From Rhodoplanes sp. (GTDB taxonomy: Bacteria; Pseudomonadota; Alphaproteobacteria; Rhizobiales; Xanthobacteraceae): a DNA stretch of 64,000 nt. The position numbers and the translations under genes were made by a program. Below, piece after piece: positions 30,037 to 47,708 of the stretch. The number at the start of each line of letters is the position of its first letter. Within the stretch, counting starts at the first letter, position 1. The DNA lies in assembly GCF_013377085.1 (NCBI RefSeq), contig NZ_JACAAX010000021.1, positions 1 to 64,000 on the forward strand, read 5' to 3'. The notes beneath the pieces were generated by a model. The model saw only the letters and a program-made list of their open reading frames with translations, was not told the DNA's origin and did not search any database.

Positions 30037-30531
30037 TCAGCACCGCGCGACGAGGCGGCGGGACGGCATGCTCTTGACCGCGCGCACGCGGGCGCCGGCC
30101 AGCAGCGGGAACGTGACGATCGAGATCTCCCACAGATCGATCGCCTCGAGCTTGCGGATGCGGGTCGCCGGATCGATGCGGCCCCGCACGGTGCGAAAGC
30201 CGATGGAGAGCCCGTCGACGGCGCCGGCGCGCACCAGCGCCAAAACCTCGCGGGCGCGGGCGACGTCGGGGATCAGCTTTCCGCGCGCCTTCAGGCCGCG
30301 AAAATCCTCGGTGAGGTCGAGCCAGATGCCGATCGGCTCGGCCGGGTCGTGCTGGAACAGCATCGGGATGCGGCGCAGCCCGCGGGTGCGCAGCGTCTGC
30401 GCGAAGGCGCCCGGCATCACCATGTCGCGCGCCTGGTCGACCTCGCCGAACAGCGAGGCATAGCCTTCGACCGTGCCGTCGCGGTCGACAGTCGGCGCGG
30501 TGCGGAGGATGTCGGAGACGGGGCTGAGCAT
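30037..30531 (-). CDS. GTA g4-like HK97 prohead protease
   Basis: Prohead maturation protease of 164 residues (GTA gene 4). The family segments are EGYASLFGEVDQARDMVMPGAF with the Gly-Tyr-Ala start, IPMLFQHDPAEPIG containing the catalytic His, and GLSIGFRTV containing the catalytic Ser, followed by DLWEISIVTFP. It cleaves the capsid N-terminal scaffold. It lies 45 bases before the capsid gene. Upstream, a plus-strand carbonic anhydrase separates it from the portal group. Confidence 0.93.
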   Translation of the reverse strand: MLSPVSDILRTAPTVDRDGTVEGYASLFGEVDQARDMVMPGAFAQTLRTRGLRRIPMLFQHDPAEPIGIWLDLTEDFRGLKARGKLIPDVARAREVLALVRAGAVDGLSIGFRTVRGRIDPATRIRKLEAIDLWEISIVTFPLLAGARVRAVKSMPSRRLVARC

Positions 30532-31922: not shown

Positions 31923-33128
31923 TCACACCCGGTCGCCACCATCGATCGGACCGAAGCCCAGCATCGCCCGCTTCTCGTTGACGGTGAGGAAGGGCGCGGC
32001 GGTGAGGCGGTCCCACAGCGCGGCGCGGTCGCCGGCCAGCGCATCGACCCGGTCGGTGTCGACCACCAGCGTGAGACGCTCGCCGAAGGCCGGCGCCAGC
32101 CACTGGGCGAGCGCACCGCCGACCCGGCTGGCCAGCGGCAGCACGGTGTGGCGCCAGAACGCCCGGTTCGCCTCCTGGAAGTTCGCATAGGTGTTGTCGC
32201 CCGGAATGCCGAGCAGCATCGGCGGCACCCCGAAGGCAAAAGCAATCTCTCGCGCGGCGCTGTTCTTGGCTTCGAGGAAATCCATGTCCTTCGGCGTCAT
32301 CGACATCGCCTTCCAGTCGAGCCCGCCTTCGAGCAGCAGCGGCCGGCCGGCATTGGCGGCGCCCTGATAGCTCGTCTCCAATTCCCGTTTCAGCCGCTCG
32401 TACTGGTCCTCGGCCAGGATCGCGCCGTCCGGCGCCGCATAGACGAGCGCGCCGGAGGGCCGCGCCGCATTGTCGAGCAGCGCCTTGTTCCAGCGCGCCG
32501 CGGCGTTGTGGGTGTCGACCGCGACGGCCGCCGCCTCCAGGGCGCCGAGGCCGTAGTGATCGTCGAGCGGATTGAAAAGCACCAGATGCAGGATCGGCGG
32601 CAGCGCGCCCGCCTGCTCGAACCGCACGGTGCGGCCCGCGGCCGTGTAGTCGTAGGCCTGCGCCCAGCCGTCCGGGCCCGGCACCACCCGCATGCGGTCG
32701 GGCCGCAGCGCATAGAGCTCGCGCACCGTTCCGTCGAGGCTGACGGCCTCGACATAGCCGTTGCCGCTGATCAGCAGATAGGCCGTGACGGCTTCGAGAA
32801 ACGCCGCCCCGTCCTGCCGCGGATTGGGCCGCGCCAAGAGATCGGTCAGCGCATGATGGTCTTGCGGCTCGCCCGCCTCGTAGGCGAGGTAGGTGAGCGC
32901 CGCGACATTTTCGGCGACCAGCTTTATCGCCCGATGCGCCACCGCATTCTTGACGAAACCCTCGCGGGCCAGCGCCGCATAGTCGCGCGGCGTCCAGCGG
33001 GCCGTGCCGCCCGACTCGATCTGCACCAGGCGGGCGACACGCGAGCTTTTCTGCTCGCGCGACAAGGGCGAGGACTCGCGCGGCGCGCGGAAAGGCGCGC
33101 GCAAGAGGCGCGTCAGACGGTTCGGCAT
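31923..33128 (-). CDS. GTA g3-like HK97 family portal protein
   Basis: Portal protein of 401 residues, the ring through which DNA enters the capsid. Family segments include the WTPRDYAALAREGFVKNAVAHRA start, LLARPNPRQDGAAFLEAVTAYLLISGNGYVE, and the C-terminal PPMLLGIPGDNTYANFQEANRAFWR. It is the most upstream GTA gene in this window. The gene appears intact. Confidence 0.95.
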   Translation of the reverse strand: MPNRLTRLLRAPFRAPRESSPLSREQKSSRVARLVQIESGGTARWTPRDYAALAREGFVKNAVAHRAIKLVAENVAALTYLAYEAGEPQDHHALTDLLARPNPRQDGAAFLEAVTAYLLISGNGYVEAVSLDGTVRELYALRPDRMRVVPGPDGWAQAYDYTAAGRTVRFEQAGALPPILHLVLFNPLDDHYGLGALEAAAVAVDTHNAAARWNKALLDNAARPSGALVYAAPDGAILAEDQYERLKRELETSYQGAANAGRPLLLEGGLDWKAMSMTPKDMDFLEAKNSAAREIAFAFGVPPMLLGIPGDNTYANFQEANRAFWRHTVLPLASRVGGALAQWLAPAFGERLTLVVDTDRVDALAGDRAALWDRLTAAPFLTVNEKRAMLGFGPIDGGDRV

Positions 33129-33342: not shown

Positions 33343-36300
33343 ATGACCCCGCTGCAGTTCATCAAGAAGTGGAAGCCCGTCGCGCTCACCGAACGGGCTG
33401 CCGCGCATTCGCATTTTCTCGATCTGTGCGCCCTCGTCGGCCACGACGACCCGGTCACGGCCGATCCCACCGGCGAATCGTTCGCCTTCGAGAAGGGCGT
33501 CACCAAGACGGGCGGCGGCGAAGGCTTCGCCGACGTGTGGAAGAAGGGGTTCTTCGCCTGGGAGTACAAGAAGAAGAAGCGCAATCTCGACGACGCCCTC
33601 ACCCAGCTCGTCCGCTATGCGGCGGCGCTGGAAAACCCGCCGCTGCAGGTCGCCTGCGACACCGACCGTTTTCTGATTCGCAGCGCATGGACCAACGAGG
33701 TGCCGACGACCTGGGAGTTCGCCCTCGACGACCTGGCCGAGCCCAAGAACCTCGACATCCTGCGCGCCGTCTTTTTCGAGCCGCACAAGCTGCGCTCGAC
33801 CCGGACGCGCGCCGCCGTCACCAAGGAGGCGGCCGACAAGTTCTCCACCATCGCGCTGCGCCTGCAGGGCCGCGGCACGCCCGAGGAGATCGCCCACTTC
33901 GTCAACCAGCTCGTCTTCTGCTTCTTCGCCCACAGCGTGAAGCTGCTGCCGAACGATTTCTTCCCGAAGCTGCTCAAGCGGGCCGCGCAGAAGCCGCAAA
34001 ACGCCAAAGGCTATTTCGACGGCCTGTTCGCCGCGATGGAGACGGGCGGCGACTACGACCTCACCGAGATCGCCTATTTCAACGGCGGCCTGTTCGACGG
34101 GCGCCGCGCCCTGCCCCTCGATGCCGGCGATTGCGGCCTTCTGGTCGCCGCCGCGAGCCTCGACTGGAGCCAGATCGACCCGACCATCTTCGGCACCCTG
34201 TTCGAGCGCTTCCTCGATCCGGAGAAGCGCGGCCAGATCGGCGCCCACTACACCGACGCCGAGAAGATCATGATGATCGTCGAGCCGGTGGTCGTCCGTC
34301 CGCTGGCGACGGAATGGGAGGCGGCCCGCGCCGAGATCGAGGCGCTGCTCACCAAGCAGCAGAAGCCGCCGAAGCGGGCCAAGACCGGCCGGGCCATGAG
34401 CCCGGTGGAGGCCGCCGAGGAGGTGCGCTCGCGCCATCTCGAGCGGCTGCGCAACGTCTCGATCCTCGACCCCGCCTGCGGTTCCGGAAATTTCCTCTAT
34501 CTCGCCCTGCAGGCCGTGAAGGATCTCGAGCTGCGCGCAAACCTCGAATGCGAGGCGCTGGGCCTCTCGCCGCGCGCGCCCGCCGTCGGCCCCGAGATCG
34601 TCCGCGGCATCGAGATCAACCCGCTCGCCGCCGAGCTCGCCCGCACGACGATCTGGATCGGCGACATCCAGTGGGGCATCCGCAACGCCATCTACGCCCG
34701 CCCCGAGCCGATCCTGCGCAAGCTCGATGCGATCGAGTGCCGCGACGCGCTGATCACCAGGGTCGCCTCGGCCTCTTCTTCGAGCGAAACGACAGCGCAA
34801 CCGGACGCGGCCCCCTCTTCACCTCTCCCCGACGGGGAGAGGTCGGACCGCGAAGCGGTCCGGGTGAGGGGGAGCCGCCCTCTCGATACGCCCGAGCCCC
34901 CTCACCCGGAGCCGCCGCTGCGTGCAGGCTCCGACCTCTCCCCACCGGGGAGAGGTGAAGTGGAACGCTTCGTCGAGGCCGAATGGCCCGCCGCCGAGTT
35001 CATCGTCGGGAACCCGCCGTTCTTGGGCAACAAGGACATGCTGAACTCACTCGGCGAGGATTACACCAATACGCTTCGGAGCATCTTCAACCGGCTCCCA
35101 GGAAGCATCGATCTGGTGGGGTATTGGTTCGAGAAATCTCACAATTCGATTCAACAAAAATCGACTGCACGAGCTGGTCTCGTAGCCACCCAATCCATCC
35201 GGCGTGGCACCAACCGCACTGTCTTGGACCGCATAAAATCTTCTTCTGTGATTTTCGAAGCATGGTCGGACGAAGAGTGGACCGTCGATGGCGCGAACGT
35301 ACGTGTCTCATTAATTTGTTTCGGTACACACCAAGCAGACAAGCATCTAGACGGAACAATCGTTCGAGAGATCAATGCGGACCTCTCCTCAGGCGCGACC
35401 GATTTAACAACCGCAAAGCGTCTTCACCAGAACCTTCACGTTTGCTTTCAAGGACCGGTGAAGGTCGGACCTTTCGAAGTAGAAGGTTCGGTAGCTCGGC
35501 TGTGGCTCCGCGAACCTCTGAACCCCAATGGCCAGCCGAACAGCTCGGTACTATGGCCATGGGTTAATGGAGCGGACGTTGTTCGCCGTCCAGCCGGACG
35601 GTGGATAGTTGACTTTGGAGAGATGAGCTTATCGGAGGCAACCCTGTTTACGACCCCGTTCGATCATGTTCAATCGAACGTGCTTCCGATTAGAAGAACC
35701 AACAAGCGAGCACGACGCCGAGTTCATTGGTGGCAGCATGGCGAAACCGTCCCAGGCCTGAAAGCTGCTTTGCGCTCTCTGAGTCGTCACATACTCACGC
35801 CTCGCGTGGCGAAACATCGCGTTTTCGTCTGGTCACATGCAACAGTTCTGCCAGACAGTCGGCTTGTCGCGATTGCTAGAGCTGACAATACGAGTTTCGG
35901 AATTCTACAATCTCGCTTTCACGAATGCTGGTCTCTGCGACTAGGGGGCTGGCACGGTGTTGGTAACGACCCCCAATACACCCCGACCCTGGGATTCGAG
36001 ACCTTCCCGTTCCCCGAGGGCCTGACGCCGAACATTTCGGCTGAAAAATACGCCGACGATCCGCACGCCATCGCCATCGCGGCGGCGGCCAAAAGACTCG
36101 ACGATCTGCGCAACGCCTGGCTCAACCCGCCGGATCTGGTGAAGATCGAGCCCGAGGTGGTCCCCGGCTATCCGGACCGCATTCTTCCGAAGGACGTCCA
36201 CGCGGCCGTGATCCTGAAGACGCGTACGCTGACCAAACTCTACAACGAGCGGCCGCAATGGCTGCTCGACGCGCATCGCGATCTCGATGCTGCGGTCGCC

Positions 36301-36438
36301 GCCGCCTACGGCTGGCCGGCCGACATTTCGGAAGAGGACGCGCTGGCGAAGCTTTTGGCGCTCAACCTCGCCCGCGCCGCCGCCGGGGCCGCGCCGGAGC
36401 CGCCCGTCGAGGAGGACGAGGAGGCGGAGGAGGAGTGA
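33343..36438 (+). CDS. MmeI-like single-chain restriction-modification enzyme (type IIL/IIG)
   Basis: A 1031-residue DNA adenine methyltransferase that also carries a nuclease domain. The N-terminal PD-(D/E)xK site is D64 with E74-x-K76 (FADVWKKGFFAWEYKKK). Methyltransferase motif I DPACGSGNF is near 376-384 and motif IV NPPF at 557-560. Residues about 575-880 form the target-recognition region, and a C-terminal helical part ends in an acidic tail. One polypeptide can therefore cut and methylate; no separate nuclease gene is present. Residues 492-539 are encoded by a palindromic repeat inserted in frame. The target-recognition region is encoded by AT-richer DNA with different codon use. Inferred role: defence. 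Confidence 0.9.
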   Translation: MTPLQFIKKWKPVALTERAAAHSHFLDLCALVGHDDPVTADPTGESFAFEKGVTKTGGGEGFADVWKKGFFAWEYKKKKRNLDDALTQLVRYAAALENPPLQVACDTDRFLIRSAWTNEVPTTWEFALDDLAEPKNLDILRAVFFEPHKLRSTRTRAAVTKEAADKFSTIALRLQGRGTPEEIAHFVNQLVFCFFAHSVKLLPNDFFPKLLKRAAQKPQNAKGYFDGLFAAMETGGDYDLTEIAYFNGGLFDGRRALPLDAGDCGLLVAAASLDWSQIDPTIFGTLFERFLDPEKRGQIGAHYTDAEKIMMIVEPVVVRPLATEWEAARAEIEALLTKQQKPPKRAKTGRAMSPVEAAEEVRSRHLERLRNVSILDPACGSGNFLYLALQAVKDLELRANLECEALGLSPRAPAVGPEIVRGIEINPLAAELARTTIWIGDIQWGIRNAIYARPEPILRKLDAIECRDALITRVASASSSSETTAQPDAAPSSPLPDGERSDREAVRVRGSRPLDTPEPPHPEPPLRAGSDLSPPGRGEVERFVEAEWPAAEFIVGNPPFLGNKDMLNSLGEDYTNTLRSIFNRLPGSIDLVGYWFEKSHNSIQQKSTARAGLVATQSIRRGTNRTVLDRIKSSSVIFEAWSDEEWTVDGANVRVSLICFGTHQADKHLDGTIVREINADLSSGATDLTTAKRLHQNLHVCFQGPVKVGPFEVEGSVARLWLREPLNPNGQPNSSVLWPWVNGADVVRRPAGRWIVDFGEMSLSEATLFTTPFDHVQSNVLPIRRTNKRARRRVHWWQHGETVPGLKAALRSLSRHILTPRVAKHRVFVWSHATVLPDSRLVAIARADNTSFGILQSRFHECWSLRLGGWHGVGNDPQYTPTLGFETFPFPEGLTPNISAEKYADDPHAIAIAAAAKRLDDLRNAWLNPPDLVKIEPEVVPGYPDRILPKDVHAAVILKTRTLTKLYNERPQWLLDAHRDLDAAVAAAYGWPADISEEDALAKLLALNLARAAAGAAPEPPVEEDEEAEEE
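34817..34960. repeat. palindromic repeat embedded in frame in the R-M gene
   Basis: 144 bases (48 codons) bounded by CTTCACCTCTCCCC and its exact reverse complement GGGGAGAGGTGAAG, with internal hairpins including GGACCGCGAAGCGGTCC. A close copy is intergenic at 36631-36773. Inside the gene it adds a Pro/Arg-rich stretch between IECRDAL and the NPPF motif. Confidence 0.88.
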
Positions 36439-36451
36439 CACAAGTCTTCAC

Positions 36452-36585
36452 GAACTCCGACTCGTCATGCGCGGGCTCGACCCGCGCATCCATCGCTGAA
36501 GAAGAGCTTCTTTCGAAGCTCGATGGATTGCCGGGTCAAGCCCGGCAATGACGATAAGGTCGACGACAACGACCCGATGTTCCGA
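36452..36585. repeat. dispersed inverted repeat, copy 1
   Basis: Contains GGGCTCGACCCGCGCATCC, AAGAGCTTCTTTCGAAGCTC and GCCGGGTCAAGCCCGGCAATG. An inverted copy, including its flanks, is at 55962-56093. It lies directly after the R-M gene. Confidence 0.82.
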
Positions 36586-36630: not shown

Positions 36631-36773
36631 CTTCACCTCTCCCCGTCGGGGAGAGGTCGACGCGCGAAGCGCGGCGGGTGAGGGGGAACCGGCCTCTCGA
36701 TACGCTCCAACCCCTCACCCGGAGCCGTCGCTGCGCGCCGGCTCCGACCTCTCCCCGACGGGGAGAGGTGAAG
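36631..36773. repeat. palindromic repeat, intergenic copy of the in-gene element
   Basis: 143 bases with the same termini (CTTCACCTCTCCCC / GGGGAGAGGTGAAG), the same orientation and the shared core CCTCTCGATACGC as the element at 34817-34960. Together with the repeat at 36452-36585 it fills the 386-base gap between the R-M gene and the membrane protein gene; nothing else is seen there. Confidence 0.88.
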
Positions 36774-47442: not shown

Positions 47443-47708
47443 GAGGAGATCCTCGAATTGCCCGAAAAGTGCTGGACCCGATTTACCCTCCCCTGGGTTT
47501 CGCGGCTTCGCCGCGACGGGAGGGTCGGGGCGCGCGAAGCGCGCACCGGGGTGGGGTGAGAGCCCCGGGCGCAGGACTCGAAATGGGAGAAGCCCCACCA
47601 AGCCGCGCCGCTGTCACCCCCTCCCGGCGCTCCGCGCTGTCGCGCGGAGCGCCGACCTCCCCCCTCCAGGGGGAGGTGAAGACAGAGACGGCGCCCTGCT
47701 CCGCCGCG
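47443..47708. repeat. two palindromic repeats between binding-protein and permease genes
   Basis: The left-hand element (about 47480-47558) has TACCCTCCCCTGGGTTTCGC and the hairpin GGCTTCGCCGCGACGGGAGGG. The right-hand element (about 47609-47688) has TCACCCCCTCCCGGCGCTCC and ends CCAGGGGGAGGTGAAGACAG. As in the peptide operon, the palindromes follow the solute-binding gene. Confidence 0.7.

What the first reader, a model, noticed from the sequence alone, without database searches (positions are those of the whole stretch)
34817..34960. Palindromic repeat translated in frame inside a restriction-modification enzyme
A 144-base element with exact inverted 14-base ends lies within the reading frame as precisely 48 codons. 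A sister copy 1.8 kb away is intergenic. The insertion lies in the linker between the region before motif IV and NPPF, without stop codons. It resembles the protein-coding palindromic elements of Rickettsia, but in a defence enzyme. It may be neutral or may alter activity.
Basis: seen in the sequence. Interest (0 to 1): 0.75.

Follow-up and report, generated by a model that had tools for sequence, protein, structure and literature searches.

The report
DNA repeat translated inside restriction enzyme
A repeated hairpin sequence that normally lies between genes has landed, in frame, in a floppy loop of a bacterial DNA-defence enzyme. Relatives of this enzyme in other bacteria have independently gained different repeats in the same loop or in two other loops, so these loops look like spots that tolerate, or possibly attract, such insertions.

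Summary
A 144-bp composite palindrome with exact 14-base inverted ends lies in frame and stop-free (48 codons) in a 1031-residue MmeI-like (Type IIL/IIG) restriction-modification gene of a Rhodoplanes species. It is a genomic repeat: 66 core hairpins in this genome against 0 for the reversed control pattern. An 88% identical copy lies 1.8 kb downstream.

R. serenus has the same element in frame at the same place. R. elegans and R. tepidamans have an unrelated CGTC-type REP dimer there. A Methylocystis and a Bosea MAG have their own repeats there. Most other homologs have short linkers with no repeat. Methylocystis relatives carry in-frame repeats in two further loops of the same enzyme. AlphaFold2 shows the insert as a disordered loop between two strands before NPPF, with the MmeI fold and catalytic residues kept.

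Most likely these are repeat insertions that survive because the loops tolerate them, giving a disordered peptide in a still functional enzyme. In-frame palindromes in proteins are known (Rickettsia RPEs, intragenic REPs), so this is a new member of a known kind, with unusually clear recurrence. Function and mobiliser are unproven. One feature is unexplained: the insert differs less at synonymous sites than its host gene.

The parts
33343..36438 (+). MmeI-like Type IIL/IIG restriction-methyltransferase gene, 1031 aa
   Evidence: Pfam MmeI_Mtase, MmeI_hel, MmeI_TRD; PADLOC REase_MTase_IIG, E 5.5e-302, residues 1-1016; Foldseek best hit MmeI 5hr4
34817..34960 (.). 144-bp composite palindromic repeat, translated in frame as 48 codons
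   Evidence: exact 14-base inverted ends, stop-free in the gene's frame; repeated in the genome
34821..34843 (.). left core hairpin ACCTCTCCCC-GAC-GGGGAGAGGT
34934..34956 (.). right core hairpin ACCTCTCCCC-ACC-GGGGAGAGGT
34774..34956 (+). residues 478-538: predicted disordered loop (pLDDT < 50) between strands 471-474 and 542-545, containing the insert
   Evidence: AlphaFold2 model
34468..34494 (+). methyltransferase motif I, DPACGSGNF (residues 376-384)
35011..35022 (+). methyltransferase motif IV, NPPF (residues 557-560)
36631..36773 (.). sister copy of the element, intergenic, 88% identical; similarity to the gene copy runs about 20 nt past the right end (16/20)
36463..36553 (.). intergenic CGTC-tagged REP dimer, by sequence the repeat kind found inside the orthologous genes of R. 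elegans and R. tepidamans
   Evidence: sequence; that kind is repeated in this genome; CGTC definition in PMC3733652

Best explanation
The element belongs to a genus-wide family of composite palindromic repeats (two inverted hairpin units). Copies are spread at a low rate by an unidentified mechanism. A copy that lands in a gene is normally removed by selection; the rare one that lands in frame, stop-free, in a disordered surface loop survives. The loop before motif IV of this MmeI-like enzyme, and two other loops in Methylocystis relatives, are such permissive places, so different local repeats accumulate there in different lineages. The result is an extra unstructured peptide in an enzyme that is probably still active. 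Shown: repeat nature, in-frame position, empty-site homologs, different repeats at the same loops, predicted disorder, conserved catalytic residues. Inferred: mobility mechanism, retained activity, neutrality.
For: Repeat in own genome: 66 core hairpins, control 0. In-gene copies are rare: of 56 copies examined, 2 lie in frame and stop-free between coding flanks. Most family members have a motif I-NPPF distance of 113-122; the window has 181. Different inserts at the same linker: the same element in R. serenus; a CGTC-type dimer in R. elegans and R. tepidamans, with 48-72 matches per Rhodoplanes genome; a Methylocystis MAG insert with 103 matches in its genome; a Bosea MAG insert with 30 matches. 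Further loops: in Methylocystis silviterrae, of a 721-nt query only the two insert regions recur elsewhere in the genome. Structure: residues 478-538 have pLDDT < 50 and no secondary structure between two strands; the other two sites (about 665 and 814) also fall between secondary-structure elements. Motif I, NPPF, the His of GAHYT, the Trp after motif IV and the D-X9-ExK nuclease motif are invariant or nearly so; the rest of the gene is under purifying selection, dN/dS 0.12-0.16.
Against: The insert differs from its R. serenus counterpart at fewer synonymous sites than the N-terminal part of the gene (4.5 of 40.5 against 119.5 of 347.7, p = 0.001). Purely neutral codons should not do that; DNA-level constraint, recombination or later insertion is possible. 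The protein tree weakly groups R. serenus with the CGTC carriers (94/83), so replacement or transfer of the linker has to be assumed. No target-site duplication was seen by eye and no mobilising enzyme was identified. Enzyme activity is not known.
Confidence: 0.75

Rival explanations
1. The inserted DNA is kept for its RNA hairpin: a very stable structure inside the mRNA slows ribosomes between the motif I half and the motif IV/TRD half, tuning folding or expression of a potentially harmful enzyme.
For: RNA fold -112 kcal/mol, z -9.6. Synonymous divergence in the insert is low, while nonsynonymous divergence equals that of the N-terminal part. All inserts tested fold better than every one of 200 shuffles.
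Against: R. serenus broke the right hairpin with a 21-nt in-frame insertion. Most family members do without any insert. Any palindromic repeat would fold well.
Confidence: 0.1
2. Insertion is targeted: the repeat-moving machinery prefers particular DNA or genes for DNA-processing enzymes, and the hotspots reflect targeting, not tolerance.
For: Both in-frame genes found in this genome are DNA enzymes, the second a DNA ligase whose same loop carries repeat sequence or remnants in 5 of 6 Rhodoplanes genomes. Di Nocera et al. report many REP-decorated DNA-repair genes and different REPs at about the same site in Xanthomonas recB (PMC3733652).
Against: Different repeat families with different ends share the sites, which fits tolerance better. 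Only two genes were found in this genome.
Confidence: 0.08
3. The peptide itself has gained a function, such as contacting DNA or a partner, or changing cleavage or methylation.
For: The loop is in the methyltransferase domain just before the catalytic NPPF. The R. serenus peptide is similar, 92% at DNA level.
Against: At the same loop different lineages carry unrelated peptides or none. dN/dS in the insert is about 0.55 against 0.12 in the N-terminal part. The loop is predicted disordered.
Confidence: 0.05
4. The enzyme is inactivated and the repeat sits in a decaying gene.
For: Repeats of this family normally lie between genes; activity is unknown.
Against: Full-length frame; catalytic residues kept; purifying selection; all length changes among the four Rhodoplanes orthologs are multiples of three and none breaks the frame.
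Confidence: 0.04

Closest known systems
Rickettsia palindromic elements (RPE), Ogata et al. 2000, as reviewed in PMC2229807
   Same: 100-150 bp palindromic repeats, also intergenic, translated in frame inside conserved protein genes; gmk with an RPE is still active
   Different: Different bacteria; homology to any RPE family was not tested. Here several unrelated repeat families hit the same loops of one enzyme family.
Intragenic REPs, CGTC/GTAG superfamilies (Di Nocera et al. 2013, PMC3733652)
   Same: REP dimers inside ORFs, often of DNA-processing enzymes; different REPs at about the same site of recB in two Xanthomonas species. The R. elegans/R. tepidamans and Methylocystis (third loop) inserts are CGTC-type.
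   Different: The window element carries neither a GTAG nor a CGTC end. Restriction enzymes are not mentioned in the main text (supplement not read). Here three loops and several genera.
MmeI, Type IIL restriction-modification enzyme (PDB 5hr4, PMC4833311)
   Same: Domain order, fold (Foldseek rank 1, TM 0.75 by target length), motif I, NPPF, box residues
   Different: The motif I-NPPF linker is about 65 residues longer, 48 of them from the repeat; predicted disordered
MITEs such as ERIC and Correia elements (PMC2229807)
   Same: Small non-autonomous repeats with open frames fused in frame to host ORFs
   Different: No target-site duplication or TA ends seen here; mobiliser unknown

Membership tests
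MmeI-like Type IIL/IIG restriction-modification enzymes | gamma-class adenine methyltransferase with motif I then NPPF, helical spacer and TRD in one chain | tested here: met
   Pfam MmeI_hel, MmeI_Mtase, MmeI_TRD; motifs invariant in 30 homologs; MmeI fold
MmeI-like Type IIL/IIG restriction-modification enzymes | N-terminal D-X9-ExK nuclease motif | tested here: met
   D64, E74, K76 in GFADVWKKGFFAWEYK, nearly invariant, aligned with MmeI
MmeI-like Type IIL/IIG restriction-modification enzymes | methylates and cleaves DNA at a specific site | not testable with these tools
   needs a methylome and digestion assay
Rickettsia palindromic elements | palindromic repeat translated in frame inside a conserved protein gene | tested here: met
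Rickettsia palindromic elements | belongs to Rickettsia and is homologous to a described RPE family | tested here: not met
   The host is Rhodoplanes (orthologs in named Rhodoplanes species). RPE sequence homology itself was not tested. Not filed as an RPE; it works like one.
GTAG/CGTC REP superfamilies | GTAG or CGTC tag at one end of the palindrome | tested here: not met
   The window element starts CTTCACC and ends GGTGAAG. The R. elegans/R. tepidamans insert has CGTC...GACG ends.
GTAG/CGTC REP superfamilies | spread by an associated tyrosine transposase (RAYT) | tested here: inconclusive
   One Y1_Tnp ORF in the genome; by eye it is bounded by GTGACAGTGCAC / GTGCACTGTCAC inverted repeats, not by this element
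MITE | terminal inverted repeats plus target-site duplication | tested here: not met
   14-base inverted ends are present, but no direct repeat flanks the element by eye

The most novel reading that the evidence does not exclude
Loops of MmeI-like enzymes, and of a DNA ligase, are places where genomes repeatedly capture palindromic repeats because the RNA or DNA hairpin, not the peptide, is useful, for example as a translational pause between modules or a recombination point for exchanging target-recognition domains.
Probability: 0.1. Interest if true: 0.75.

Novelty: new member of a known kind. Interest (0 to 1): 0.5.

Why it matters
It gives a clear case outside Rickettsia of repeats becoming protein, with empty sites, an in-frame shared insertion, and different repeats at the same loops in several genera. 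That makes the old question of whether such inserts are merely tolerated or are used directly testable: natural variants with and without inserts exist in one enzyme family whose activity can be read from methylomes.

Tried and rejected
Rfam scan of the window: no match. A spacer-specific 18-mer pattern in the genus with 3 mismatches was too unspecific to show a sub-family. RAYT as mobiliser: the single Y1_Tnp ORF is not surrounded by this element. Gene conversion from other R. serenus copies as the cause of low divergence: no full-length closer copy found there. Sister copy as a duplicate that carries gene flank: the right flank is similar beyond the element (16/20, anchored score p about 2e-4) but the left is not convincing (p 0.04), so the direction of copying is left open. 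My count of in-gene copies uses a simple codon-usage model and covers 56 copies; the finding itself only just passes on its right side because of the atypical TRD, so 2 of 56 is a lower bound.

Full report
Observation. The element at 34817-34960 is 144 bp, has exact 14-base inverted ends, and is read without a stop as 48 codons of a 1031-codon ORF at 33343-36438. A sister copy at 36631-36773 is 88% identical and intergenic. The whole genome is searchable as G000 (6.48 Mb in 89 contigs). Other hits to the element score lower, and the core hairpin pattern is found 66 times against 0 for its reversed control. As RNA the element folds into one long hairpin of -112 kcal/mol, z -9.6. About half of the reading frames of such copies are stop-free (mean 3.0 of 6 over 23 copies), so a stop-free passage is not in itself remarkable.

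Host gene. The protein matches Pfam MmeI helical spacer, methyltransferase and TRD families, PADLOC Type IIG restriction-methyltransferase over residues 1-1016, and MmeI 5hr4 by sequence and by fold. Motif I, NPPF and the residues aligned with the nuclease motif are conserved. The MmeI paper names His314, Trp570 and NPPF as the base-binding box (PMC4833311); H302, W646 and NPPF are invariant here. The genus is Rhodoplanes: orthologs at 74-76% identity over the whole protein are found in R. serenus, R. tepidamans and R. elegans.

Empty and filled sites. In most homologs of this subfamily motif I and NPPF are 113-122 residues apart, including the nearest outgroup Rhodopseudomonas AAP120 (117). 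The window has 181. Some lineages (Bradyrhizobium, Mesorhizobium and others) have longer linkers of 132-143 without a recognisable repeat, and a more distant subfamily has 133-164, so the linker is generally variable in length. R. serenus has the same element with the same junctions in frame, plus 21 extra bases that break the right hairpin. R. elegans and R. tepidamans have instead a CGTC-type palindromic dimer, a kind with 48 to 72 matches in each of the four Rhodoplanes genomes searched. A Methylocystis MAG and a Bosea MAG have inserts at the same place that match many sites of their own genomes: 103 and 30 matches, some of them opposite-strand matches at the same place. Five other Methylocystis-group homologs (L083, L084, L086, L087, L088) have no insert at this linker, so the Methylocystis insertion is lineage-specific.

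More loops. Aligned against 30 family members, Methylocystis relatives show two further in-frame inserts, near window residues 665 and 814. In M. silviterrae a 721-nt stretch covering both was searched against its genome, and only the two inserts recur elsewhere. One Hyphomicrobiales MAG (L085) has yet another repeat-like sequence at 665; its repetition was not checked. One MAG (L066) has all three loops filled.

Structure. AlphaFold2 (mean pLDDT 83.7) gives pLDDT below 50 and no secondary structure for residues 478-538, between strands 471-474 and 542-545. Sites 665 and 814 lie in loops between secondary-structure elements of the model. The inserts therefore sit in loops, and the catalytic strand with NPPF follows the first.

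How common in genes. With a codon-usage model trained on the window, 2 of 56 examined copies are in frame, stop-free and between coding flanks: the finding and a copy in an ATP-dependent DNA ligase. The window is roughly 79% coding by the same model, so in-gene copies are strongly depleted. The ligase loop carries repeat sequence or remnants in five of six Rhodoplanes genomes and is empty in R. serenus.

Evolution. Between the window and R. serenus the gene is under purifying selection (dN/dS 0.12 in the N-terminal part, 0.14 in the C-terminal part), while the insert has dN/dS 0.55 because its synonymous divergence is low (0.12 against 0.46 and 0.80; Fisher p 0.001 and 5e-6). The N-terminal/C-terminal protein tree weakly places R. 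serenus with the CGTC carriers (94/83). So either an ancestral element was replaced in the R. elegans/R. tepidamans ancestor, or the linker moved between lineages, or the DNA is constrained. This is unexplained.

Comparison. In-frame palindromic inserts are known from Rickettsia (reviewed in PMC2229807) and as intragenic REPs in many species, often in DNA-repair genes, with one case of different REPs at about the same site of recB (PMC3733652). The present case is therefore a new member of a known kind. Its value lies in recurrence across genera, three loops, and an enzyme whose activity can be read from methylomes.

Limits. Two of the genera rest on MAG contigs. The copy survey is incomplete and codon-model based. 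No activity, mobility or neutrality was measured.

Noticed in passing
L024:1149-2975 (G000:C12:93075-94898): A second in-frame copy of the repeat family lies in an ATP-dependent DNA ligase ORF; the same loop carries repeat sequence or remnants in 5 of 6 Rhodoplanes genomes and is empty in R. serenus.
   Followed up: partly
window 35047-35862 (residues 568-840): The target-recognition part differs strongly between the window and R. serenus (51% nucleotide identity) while the N-terminal part is 88% identical, suggesting exchange of the TRD.
   Followed up: no
L066, L083, L084, L086, L087 near residues aligned to window 665 and 814: Methylocystis homologs carry in-frame palindromic repeats in these two further loops (only the second in L086); in M. 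silviterrae both inserts were shown to recur in its genome.
   Followed up: yes
window 34817-34960 against R. serenus (L029/L065): Synonymous divergence inside the insert (residues 492-539) is lower than in the rest of the gene.
   Followed up: partly
window 47617-47681: A further partial copy of the repeat (78% over 67 nt).
   Followed up: no
window 30037-30531 and 31923-33128 (minus strand): From their sequence these ORFs look like a phage prohead protease and a portal protein next to the restriction gene, possibly a gene transfer agent or prophage; no family search was run on them.
   Followed up: no
L109:1201-1863 (G000:C23, minus strand): A Y1_Tnp tyrosine transposase ORF bounded by GTGACAGTGCAC / GTGCACTGTCAC inverted repeats, by eye a TIR-type rather than REP-type arrangement.
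   Followed up: partly
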